Assembly: GCA_024304985.1 (NCBI GenBank)
Contig: JAMWZC010000001.1
Span: 186,001-250,000, forward strand
Origin: Paracoccaceae bacterium
Lineage (GTDB): Bacteria > Pseudomonadota > Alphaproteobacteria > Rhodobacterales > Rhodobacteraceae
DNA: 64,000 bases
Direction of reading: 5' to 3'
Positions 41,597 through 45,006 of this stretch are shown here, one piece after another (the stretch's first letter is position 1; each line of letters starts with the position of its first letter). The notes under the pieces were generated by a model. It had not been told where the DNA came from, ran no database searches, and saw only the letters and a list, made by a program, of their open reading frames with translations. The position numbers and the translations under genes are program-made.

Positions 41597-42019
41597 TCAG
41601 CCCACCAGTTCCAGACCCGAGAAGAAATACGCGATCTCTTCCGCCGCCGTTTCCGGCGCGTCCGACCCGTGGACCGAGTTCTCGCCGATCGACAGCGCGA
41701 ATTCCTTGCGGATCGTGCCCTCAGCCGCCTCGGCGGGGTTCGTCGCGCCCATCACTTCGCGGTTCTTCAGAACGGCGTTCTCGCCTTCCAGAACCTGCAC
41801 GACGATCGGCTCGGACGCCATGAACTCGCACAGTTCGTCATAGAAGGGACGCTCCTTGTGCACCGCATAGAACACCCCGGCCTGCGCCTTGGTCAGGTGG
41901 ATCCGCTTCTGCGCCACGATCCGCAGGCCAGCGGCCTCGAATTTGGCGTTGATGGCGCCGGTCAGGTTGCGCTTGGTGGCGTCGGGTTTGATGATCGAAA
42001 AGGTGCGCTGAATGGCCAT
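41597..42019 (-). CDS. ndk: Nucleoside diphosphate kinase
   Basis: 140 aa, full length for the family. It transfers phosphate from ATP to nucleoside diphosphates through a phospho-histidine. The active-site His lies in [21 protein letters not shown] (NxxHGSD motif), and [10 protein letters not shown] with the ATP-binding Lys is at the N-terminus. The ATG at 42019 has AGAAAGAG upstream. Its leader and first 15 codons are duplicated in inverted orientation at 42141-42229. Confidence 0.95.
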
Positions 42020-42062
42020 GTCGTTGCTCTTTCTGTCTGCAAGGATGCCGGGCCCCATGCCC
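41974..42062 (-). repeat. 89-bp inverted repeat, ndk-side arm
   Basis: A perfect 89-base match, reverse complemented, to 42141-42229. It contains the ndk leader, ribosome site, start codon and first 15 codons. The two arms are separated by 78 bp. Confidence 0.95.
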
Positions 42063-42140
42063 CGCACCCGATGAAATCGCCGCGCTCCTATCATGGCCCC
42101 CCACGCTTGAAAAGGCGTGATTGACCCCGCCCGCGGCTTC

Positions 42141-42229
42141 GGGCATGGGGCCCGGCATCCTTGCAGACAGAAAGAGCAACGACATGGCCATTCAGCGCAC
42201 CTTTTCGATCATCAAACCCGACGCCACCA
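42141..42229 (+). repeat. 89-bp inverted repeat, ABC-F-side arm
   Basis: An identical copy of the ndk leader and 5' coding region, placed so that its start codon opens the ABC-F frame. Homology ends after the Thr15 codon at GCCACCA, where the ABC-F sequence continues in frame. Confidence 0.95.
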
Positions 42230-44013
42230 TCCCGACAGGCCATAAAGTCGGCCTGATCGGCCGCAATGGCGCGGGCAAGACGACGCTGTTCAAACTCATC
42301 CGGGGCGAATTGCCGCTGGAGGGGGGCACCATCACCCTGCCCGCCCGCGCCCGCATCGGTGGCGTCGCACAGGAGGTGCCCGGCAACGAGGTCTCGCTGC
42401 TGGACACCGTCCTTGCCGCGGATACCGAACGCGCCGCCCTGCTGGCCGAGGCGGAGACCGCCACCGATCCCGCCCGCATCTCCGAGGTGCAGACCCGCCT
42501 CGCCGATATCGACGCCTGGTCGGCCGAGGCGCGCGCCTCCTCCATCCTGCGCGGTCTGGGCTTCGACGCGTCCGAACAGCTCATGCCCTGCTCCGCCTTC
42601 TCGGGCGGCTGGCGGATGCGCGTGGCCCTCGCCGCCGTCCTCTTCGCACAGCCCGACTACCTGCTGCTGGATGAGCCGACCAACTATCTCGACCTTGAAG
42701 GCGCGCTCTGGCTTGAGAACTACCTGATGAAATACCCCCACACGGTGCTCATCATCTCTCACGACCGCGAGCTTCTGAACCGCGCTGTCGGCTCCATCCT
42801 GCATCTGGAAGACCGCAAACTCACCTATTACTCCGGCAATTACGATCAATTCGCCCGCCAGCGCGCCGCCCAAAGGGCCATCCTGACCGCCGCCGCCAAG
42901 AAACAGGACGCCCGCCGCGCCCATCTGCAAAGCTTCGTCGACCGCTTCAAGGCCAAGGCCAGCAAGGCCAAACAGGCCCAGTCCCGCGTCAAGATGCTGG
43001 AGAAGATGGAAACAATCCGCGCGCCCGAAGATGCCGCCCGCACGGTCTTTTCCTTCCCCGAACCCGAGGAGTTTTCGCCTCCCATCATCTCGATCGAGAA
43101 TGGCAGCACCGGCTATGGCGACACCGTCGTGCTGCGCAACCTCAACCTGCGCATCGATCAGGATGACCGCATCGCCCTGCTGGGCAAGAACGGTCAGGGC
43201 AAATCGACTTTGTCGAAACTCCTCTCGGGCCGCCTTGCCGCCATGGGCGGCAAGACCACGCAATCCACCAAGCTGCGCATCGGTTTTTTCGCGCAACATC
43301 AGGTGGATGAGCTGCGGGTCGAGGAAACACCCCTCCAGCACCTGCTGCGCGAACGCCCGGCGGAAGGTCAGGCCAAGCTGCGCGCCCGTCTCGCAGGTTT
43401 CGGCCTTGGCGCAGCACAAGCCGAAACCGAAGTGGGCCGCCTCTCGGGCGGGCAGAAAGCCCGCCTCTCGCTGCTCTTGGCGACCCTGCCCGCGCCGCAT
43501 CTGCTGATCCTCGACGAACCGACCAACCACCTCGACATCGAAAGCCGCGAGGCGCTGGTCGAGGCCCTCACCGCCTATTCCGGCGCCGTCATTCTTGTCA
43601 GCCATGACATGCACCTGTTGTCGATGGTGGCGGATCGCTTGTGGCTGGTGCAGGACGGCACCGTGCGCCCCTATGAGGAAGACCTTGAAACCTATCGGAA
43701 GATGCTGCTGCAATCCGATACGCCCGCAAAGTCCAAGGACAGGGACAAACCGCGCGAGGCCGCCCCCAAACCCAGCCGCGACCAGATCATGGCCCTGCGC
43801 GCCGAGGTCCGCAAATGCGAAGAGCGCGTGAACAAGCTCAACGAGATGGGCGACAAACTGGCCAAGAAACTGGCCGACCCCACCCTCTATGACGAGCGCA
43901 AGGACGAACTGGTCGTCTGGCAGAAGAAATACGCCGAACTCCGCGAAGCCCTCGACCGCGCCGAGGCCATGTGGATGACCGCGCTGGAGAAACTGGAGAA
44001 GGCCGAGGCGTAA
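42184..44013 (+). CDS. ABC-F ATPase with an Ndk-derived N-terminus
   Basis: 609 aa. Two ABC domains: Walker [10 protein letters not shown] (26-34) with [10 protein letters not shown] and [11 protein letters not shown], a linker rich in Lys/Arg, then [20 protein letters not shown] and [11 protein letters not shown], and a C-terminal coiled coil (about 555-609). This is the ABC-F (Uup/EttA) layout, soluble and ribosome-associated. Residues 1-15 are exactly those of Ndk, and ABC-F-type sequence starts at [11 protein letters not shown]. The family's usual first strands, about 20 residues including the adenine-stacking aromatic, are therefore missing, and ATP site 1 may be impaired. Translation would start from the duplicated ndk ribosome site. 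Confidence 0.85.
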
Positions 44014-44292: not shown

Positions 44293-45006
44293 GTGCGAGT
44301 ATTAGTGGATAATTCAGTTCTCCATCACTCAGTTGAACATCAAAGTGCTTGGTTGGACATTGGTGTAGAACGCTGGGGTGGAAACAACGGGATCAATATA
44401 AATACAGGACGGCTAGCCAGTAGAAATATCCCAATCATGATCAAGGATACAAAAGGCGGCCAGCAGAGCAAATATATTGCGGCACTCGCACTTGCTCACA
44501 TAAAGGGTGAATGGGAGGCTCACACCACTGACGCACTTGACCTAGAACGCCTAGAGCAGCCAAGCAATAAATTTTTAGGCATAGGCTATGCTTCATTTTC
44601 TTGGTTTGGAAAGATCAAGCGTGTTTCTAATAGTACTTTATCTGGATTTTCTTGCATTTTTCCAAGTGAACTAACACCAAATGAAAGATTCAGGGAGTTT
44701 CTATCATCTCAAGCCGATTCCGAATACTTGGAAATTAGGAACCATCTCTTTGAAGTAAACAGATCTGACAAGTCAAACCAAGATGCATGGCATCTTTTCT
44801 GTGTTGGACTATTGAAACTCGATTATCTTTTAACTTGTGATACAGCACTCCTAGGTCAAATTAAGAGTATCCGGAATCAACAGTTTCGAAAAAGACTTCT
44901 CAAGACAGTTCTACTTCCTAAAAACTTATGTGAACTTATGGGCCTAGAAGGTGCCACAGAATCTGACTTTAGCTATTTGTTGAACTTTTTAGGCGGATGG
45001 CGTTGA
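44293..45006 (+). CDS. PIN-domain-like protein on an AT-rich insert
   Basis: 237 aa from a GTG (GAGGGA just upstream; frame closed by a stop at 44248). Acidic residues at the positions of a PIN nuclease are seen: Asp6 in LVDNSVL, Glu73/Glu75, Asp164 in DAWHLFC and Asp183 in LTCDTALL. PIN domains cleave RNA, often as toxins. No antitoxin-like gene is next to it. Codon use is strikingly AT-rich compared with every neighbour, a sign of recent transfer. The middle part (about 85-150) is unlike standard VapC and may be an inserted domain. Confidence 0.6.
   Translation: MRVLVDNSVLHHSVEHQSAWLDIGVERWGGNNGININTGRLASRNIPIMIKDTKGGQQSKYIAALALAHIKGEWEAHTTDALDLERLEQPSNKFLGIGYASFSWFGKIKRVSNSTLSGFSCIFPSELTPNERFREFLSSQADSEYLEIRNHLFEVNRSDKSNQDAWHLFCVGLLKLDYLLTCDTALLGQIKSIRNQQFRKRLLKTVLLPKNLCELMGLEGATESDFSYLLNFLGGWR

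What the first reader, a model, noticed from the sequence alone, without database searches (positions are those of the whole stretch)
41974..44013. ABC-F gene restarted with the duplicated leader and first codons of ndk
A perfect 89-bp inverted repeat carries the ndk ribosome site, start and 15 codons to the front of an ABC-F gene. Homology stops at GCCACCA and the ABC-F frame continues intact. The fusion removes the usual first strands of ATP site 1. Perfect identity means it is very recent, under gene conversion, or an assembly chimera. If real, a ribosome-associated ATPase has been placed under the translation signals of a nucleotide-pool enzyme.
Basis: partly seen in the sequence, partly recalled or inferred. 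Interest (0 to 1): 0.75.

Follow-up and report, generated by a model that had tools for sequence, protein, structure and literature searches.

The report
Fold-back mutation swaps a gene's start
In this bacterial assembly the beginning of a ribosome-associated ATPase gene has been overwritten by a mirror-image copy of the start of the neighbouring gene, most likely a long fold-back copying error, though two similar scars elsewhere in the same assembly mean a sequencing artefact must still be ruled out.

Summary
A perfect 89-bp inverted repeat (41974-42062 / 42141-42229, 78-bp spacer) puts the ndk leader, start and 15 codons in frame in front of a YheS-like ABC-F gene. Three genus relatives keep the collinear ancestral layout. 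There, 67 nt including the abcF start and its first 21 codons stand where this genome has 71 nt copied from ndk. Both junctions lie in short sequence that donor and recipient already shared (10 and 8 nt against the closest relative). [quoted passage not shown] None of the 6 other genus genomes has the fusion. The model of the fusion lacks strands 1-2 of ATPase domain 1, so a weakened protein is likelier than a gain. Unexpectedly, the same assembly holds two more long fold-back repeats (in ligA and at the malate synthase G start) in 2.05 of 3.76 Mb, against none in 0.93 Mb of controls, a difference that is not significant. Either the lineage had a burst of long template switches, or library or assembly made them. 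Raw reads decide. I favour a real event, about 0.58.

The parts
41597..42019 (-). ndk, nucleoside diphosphate kinase, 140 aa, intact; donor of the copied segment
   Evidence: PF00334 E 1.6e-53; frame
41974..42062 (.). left arm of the perfect 89-nt inverted repeat: ndk leader, start and first 15 codons (original copy)
42063..42140 (.). 78-nt spacer, collinear with relatives G005, G003 and G002
   Evidence: alignment
42141..42229 (.). right arm: inverted copy of the ndk 5' end, replacing the native abcF start
42141..42150 (.). entry microhomology GGGCATGGGG, shared by the abcF leader of G005 and the reverse complement of the ndk leader
   Evidence: 10 nt with G005, 9 with G003 and G002
42151..42221 (+). 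about 71 nt newly templated from ndk
   Evidence: length by subtraction
42222..42229 (.). exit microhomology CGCCACCA, coding Ala-Thr in the same phase in both genes
   Evidence: 8 nt with G005 and G003, 7 with G002
42184..44013 (+). fused YheS-like ABC-F gene, 609 aa from the copied ndk ATG; residues 1-15 are Ndk residues

Best explanation
A single fold-back template-switch mutation in the genome of this strain. During synthesis of the + strand rightwards across the ndk/abcF intergenic region, the nascent 3' end at GGGCATGGGG paired with its own CCCCATGCCC (ndk leader) 78 nt back. It copied about 71 nt of the ndk 5' end from itself, then returned to the true template at CGCCACCA inside abcF. 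This replaced the native abcF start and first 21 codons with the ndk ribosome site, start and codons; the Ala-Thr codons overlapped in phase, so the frame survived. Shown: the replacement, the microhomologies, the polarity (ndk is the donor) and absence from 6 of 6 other genus genomes. Inferred: that it happened in vivo by this route, that the molecule exists in the living strain, and that the protein is made from the ndk signals with a damaged ATP site 1.
For: Collinear ancestral layout in G005, G003 and G002; microhomology at both junctions, runs of at least 8 and 10 nt having probability about 0.0004 and 0.0002 at random registers; fusion absent from the 6 other genus genomes and no match near its score in 393 other family genomes; no further copy of the segment in the genome; contig-end overlaps of 55 bases, so the graph could not make 7-10-nt joins; none of 26 contig ends folds back on itself by 20 nt or more; SbcC not recognised and SbcD only sub-threshold in this genome, so long hairpins may be tolerated. 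Same footprint as published template-switch mutations.
Against: Two further long fold-backs in 2.05 Mb of the same assembly, with no short or decayed ones between; a natural spectrum dominated by short events (median 12 nt in apes) would not look like that. All three are nearly length-neutral (+4, +10, -3 bp). Two of them damage genes (ligA frameshift, loss of the glcB start). No raw reads, no second assembly of the species and no expression data were available.
Confidence: 0.58

Rival explanations
1. In vitro fold-back artefact: hairpin self-priming during library or whole-genome amplification made chimeric molecules, which the assembler took up at three or more places.
For: Three perfect or nearly perfect long fold-backs, two of them gene-damaging, in one assembly and none in 0.93 Mb of controls (about 1.4 expected at equal rates, so not significant). 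Contig C3 begins AAGAGACAG, which I recall as the tail of the Nextera mosaic end, so the library was probably PCR-amplified. Amplification chimeras are mostly inverted and use short complementarity (passages of PMC1855051).
Against: Those chimeras have one inverted join with a deletion, not an exit and a return at nearly conserved length. Artefact molecules would have to outnumber true ones at each site in a 13-contig, 98.3% complete assembly. No contig end folds back on itself.
Confidence: 0.33
2. In vivo, but by break repair: foldback priming at a broken end followed by end joining through the 8-nt microhomology, rather than a switch at a replication fork.
For: Leaves the same inverted repeat and short terminal homology; a foldback-priming model exists for yeast (listing of PMC10622511, abstract only).
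Against: Would not predict near conservation of length in all three scars.
Confidence: 0.05
3. Gene conversion or a mobile element moved the ndk 5' end.
For: Perfect identity of the arms.
Against: No further full copy of the segment in the genome; nearly length-neutral replacement with microhomology at both ends; no long pre-existing homology between the two sites in relatives.
Confidence: 0.03

Closest known systems
Quasipalindrome-associated template-switch mutation in Escherichia coli (PMC7202029, abstract and introduction seen)
   Same: A nascent strand pairs with itself at an imperfect inverted repeat, copies itself and returns, making the repeat perfect
   Different: Here a 10-nt stem with a 78-nt loop grew to 89 nt and replaced a gene start; the paper works with engineered lacZ reporters
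Template switching in Saccharomyces cerevisiae coding genes (PMC8604942, abstract and passages seen)
   Same: Template switching between inverted-repeat arms changes protein sequence
   Different: Arms of 7-16 bp, spacers up to 70 bp and at most five neighbouring residues changed there; here about 71 nt and a start-codon swap
Short-range template switches in great apes, four-point model (PMC7954356, passages seen)
   Same: Same footprint of four switch points; copied length within their range (median 12, maximum 128)
   Different: Eukaryotes; no gene-start swap in the passages seen
rad27-delta yeast, defective in Okazaki fragment processing (PMC5677150, passages seen)
   Same: Several fold-back events, including palindrome extension, in one genome
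   Different: Causal genotype known there; here the ligA lesion is only a candidate and may be a consequence or an artefact
Multiple displacement amplification chimeras (PMC1855051, passages seen)
   Same: Inverted joins at short complementarity
   Different: One join with a deletion, not exit and return
E. coli YheS and other ABC-F proteins
   Same: Closest by sequence among solved structures (9vvi, 9nlh) and by NCBIfam model PRK10636
   Different: Below that model's cut-off (560.9 against 917 bits); the fusion lacks the first strands of NBD1

Membership tests
Short-range template-switch mutation | a reverse-complement copy of neighbouring sequence replaces or inserts in a locus whose ancestral state is known | tested here: met
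   G005, G003 and G002 keep the ancestral layout
Short-range template-switch mutation | switch points at pre-existing short complementarity | tested here: met
   10 and 8 nt with G005, 9 and 8 with G003, 9 and 7 with G002 (relative's abcF side against the window's ndk)
Short-range template-switch mutation | absent from sister lineages | tested here: met
   6 of 6 other genus genomes without it
Short-range template-switch mutation | arose in vivo during replication | not testable with these tools
   no raw reads, no strain
ABC-F ATPase, YheS-like | two ABC domains joined by the ABC-F linker | tested here: met
   two PF00005 stretches and PF12848
ABC-F ATPase, YheS-like | score above the curated cut-off of the YheS-type model PRK10636 | tested here: not met
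   560.9 against 917 bits for the fusion; the normal relative was not scored against it
ABC-F ATPase, YheS-like | complete first nucleotide-binding domain including strands 1-2 | tested here: not met
   no strand before residue 21 in the model of the fusion; strands 2-11 and 14-24 in the relative
Amplification chimera (artefact) | one inverted join with an intervening deletion | tested here: not met
   exit and return, nearly length-neutral
Amplification chimera (artefact) | junction supported by a minority of reads | not testable with these tools
   raw reads not available

The most novel reading that the evidence does not exclude
The strain carries a recent burst of long (about 70-110 nt) fold-back template switches in vivo, three in 2 Mb. 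Such near-palindromes survive because the lineage lacks a canonical SbcCD hairpin nuclease. The burst may be promoted by its own damaged replication-repair locus: one scar puts the BRCT domain of the only recognised NAD-dependent ligase out of frame and joins ligA in one frame to recG. Such bursts would be a route to instant swaps of start signals between neighbouring genes.
Probability: 0.2. Interest if true: 0.7.

Novelty: new member of a known kind. Interest (0 to 1): 0.42.

Why it matters
If real, it is an unusually legible natural case in which one replication error replaced the start signals and N-terminus of one gene with those of its divergent neighbour, so template switching could swap gene starts as well as alter a few bases. 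The three scars together would make this strain a test of whether loss of SbcCD or a ligase defect permits long fold-backs in bacteria. If an artefact, it defines a class of false gene fusions (long, perfect, nearly length-neutral inverted repeats) that a simple scan of draft genomes can find.

Tried and rejected
Sigma-70 promoter and terminator scan of 41950-42350: nothing found, so whether ndk transcription signals moved with the copy stays open. Independent fusions in the family: 394 genomes drawn by the tool, this one included; best E 2.1e-28 here and 1.4e-19 for the next; the list of matches was cut, so start positions were seen only for listed rows, all of the others starting at residue 6 or later. 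Selection: 0 nonsynonymous and 20 synonymous changes unique to this genome in the core, but they may predate the event and four of the six relatives also show 0 nonsynonymous. Strand bias: GC skew along contig C1 was too irregular to assign a fork direction. ExoVII: xseA found in 5 of 7 genus genomes including this one. Literature: searches for template-switch gene fusions and for fold-back misassembly listed no matching case in bacteria; this is no proof of absence, since only the listings were seen.

Rejected or disfavoured: an assembler join (k of 55 against overlaps of 7-10 nt), though a join inherited from a smaller k-mer or gap-closing stage is not wholly excluded; gene conversion; mobile element.

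Full report
Observation. The window contains one long inverted repeat: 41974-42062 and 42141-42229, 89 nt, 100% complementary, 78 nt apart. The left arm is the leader and first 15 codons of ndk (- strand, 41597-42019; PF00334). The right arm puts the same leader, start and codons in front of an ABC-F gene (42184-44013, 609 aa). That gene has two ABC_tran stretches and the ABC-F linker domain. Its best NCBIfam model is PRK10636, below that model's cut-off, and its normal relative is closest to YheS among solved structures.

Ancestral state. In the six other genomes of the genus the match to the fused protein starts at residue 13, and all six show the conventional start; none has the fusion. In G005, G003 and G002 the ndk/abcF intergenic region is collinear with the window. 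In G001, G006 and G004 the intergenic region is some 450 bp longer, and only the gene ends align. The relatives' abcF begins MLRITDLTFNIEGRPLFEAASATIPTG (with two substitutions in G001); the window has [19 protein letters not shown]. Of 109 relative loci read (several represent one genome twice), 108 show the conventional N-terminus; L023 could not be read there. In 98 of 109 ndk was found in the fetched flank and was divergent from abcF; in 11 it was not found. In 394 family genomes, this one included and only one other from this genus, no other match to the fused 49 residues comes near: 2.1e-28 here against 1.4e-19 for the next.

Footprint. From GGGCATGGG to GCCACCA there are 78 nt in G005, G003 and G002 and 82 nt here. 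The abcF side of G005 and the ndk copy already shared 10 nt at the entry point and 8 nt at the exit point; the values are 9 and 8 for G003, 9 and 7 for G002 (relative's abcF against the window's ndk). For random registers in the same 400-nt regions, runs of at least 8 or at least 10 nt have probability 0.0004 and 0.0002. So about 67 nt were replaced by 71 newly templated nt. The exit microhomology codes Ala-Thr in the same phase in both genes, so the frame was kept, a chance of one in three (inference).

How it most likely arose. The geometry is that of a fold-back template switch: the nascent strand pairs with itself 78 nt back, copies itself, and returns. Mechanism and terms follow PMC7202029 (abstract and introduction), PMC8794818 (abstract, start of the introduction and discussion) and PMC7954356 (passages), which reports copied lengths with a median of 12 and a maximum of 128. 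Identity of the arms does not require a very recent event: with 71 informative nt the 95% upper limit on divergence is about 4% (inference), while the ABC-F core differs 9.2% from G005.

Consequence for the protein. The model of a normal relative (L035) has strands at 2-11 and 14-24, with mean pLDDT 92, 84 and 91 for its first three blocks of ten. The model of the fusion has no strand before residue 21 and mean pLDDT 38 and 68 for its first two blocks. Low confidence is partly expected there, because no aligned relative shares those residues. The models give no sign that the Ndk residues rebuild the missing edge of nucleotide-binding domain 1, so a weakened ABC-F is the likeliest outcome (inference). 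The core shows 0 nonsynonymous and 20 synonymous changes unique to this genome; the relatives treated alike give 5/7, 0/28, 0/7, 0/26, 0/14 and 3/12. Decay has not begun or the event is young; the test cannot show selection after the fusion.

Is it real? Six pairs of contig ends share 54-55 identical bases, five of them exactly 55, the mark of a de Bruijn assembler at k of 55. Such a graph cannot make joins on 7-10 nt, so reads should contain both junctions, unless an earlier gap-closing stage made them. In the terminal 500 bases of all 26 contig ends there is no self-complementary stretch of 20 nt or more. Against this, a scan of 2,048,691 bases of this genome (200-bp overlaps counted twice; genome 3,760,603) found three inverted repeats scoring 26 or more with spacers up to 300 bp, and all three are long: this one, one in ligA, one at the start of malate synthase G. 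Controls of 927,861 bases (G009, G006 and 80 relative loci) gave three weak ones and none of 35 or more. At equal rates about 1.4 would be expected in the controls, so their zero is not significant. An exact scan of part of the same data also listed a 25-nt repeat here and five of 20-26 nt in these controls, with none of 30 or more in the controls.

The other two. ligA: 84-bp perfect arms, 11-bp spacer, G000:C1:47873-48051. Against G003 the region is replaced at a net gain of 10 bp. The BRCT domain then lies in another frame (PF00533 in a 124-aa ORF), and ligA reads on into recG in one 1418-aa frame. One NAD-dependent ligase adenylation domain was found in the genome; ATP-dependent ligases were not sought. 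BRCT loss lowers but need not abolish ligase activity, depending on the enzyme (passages of PMC5052709 and PMC10386641). glcB: 111-bp arms with one mismatch near the loop, 7-bp spacer, G000:C9:158029-158257. The native start region of malate synthase G (identified) is replaced at a net change of -3 bp against G005 and G003, -4 against G001.

Weighing. All three are nearly length-neutral and of similar size, with no shorter or decayed ones between. A natural spectrum dominated by short events would not give that, which argues for a special cause: a burst in vivo, or a fold-back artefact in vitro. The inverted chimeras described for amplified DNA have one join (passages of PMC1855051), not an exit and a return. 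SbcC was not matched in this genome, and SbcD only as a partial, sub-threshold match; the other genus members look the same apart from one weak SbcC match in G006. Long hairpins may therefore be tolerated here. The SbcC control is of limited use: only 1 of 14 control genomes passes its cut-off. A parallel exists in yeast: rad27-delta strains, defective in Okazaki fragment processing, show palindrome-extending template switches (passages of PMC5677150). I give 0.58 to a real fold-back template switch, 0.33 to an in vitro artefact, and small weights to the rest.

Noticed in passing
L155:8273-8451 (G000:C1:47873-48051): A second long fold-back repeat (84-bp perfect arms, 11-bp spacer) inside ligA; the BRCT domain falls out of frame and ligA runs on into recG in one 1418-aa frame.
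   Followed up: yes
L280:19429-19657 (G000:C9:158029-158257): A third long fold-back repeat (111-bp arms, one mismatch, 7-bp spacer) replacing the start region of malate synthase G.
   Followed up: yes
G000:C3:1-9 (L129): The contig begins AAGAGACAG, which I recall as the tail of the Nextera transposon end, a hint of a tagmented Illumina library.
   Followed up: partly
L009, L010, L011 (G001, G006, G004): The ndk/abcF intergenic region is about 450 bp longer in these three genus members than in G005, G003 and G002; its content was not examined.
   Followed up: no
window 44293-45006 (+): A 237-aa ORF right after abcF without any Pfam or NCBIfam match at E 0.001.
   Followed up: no
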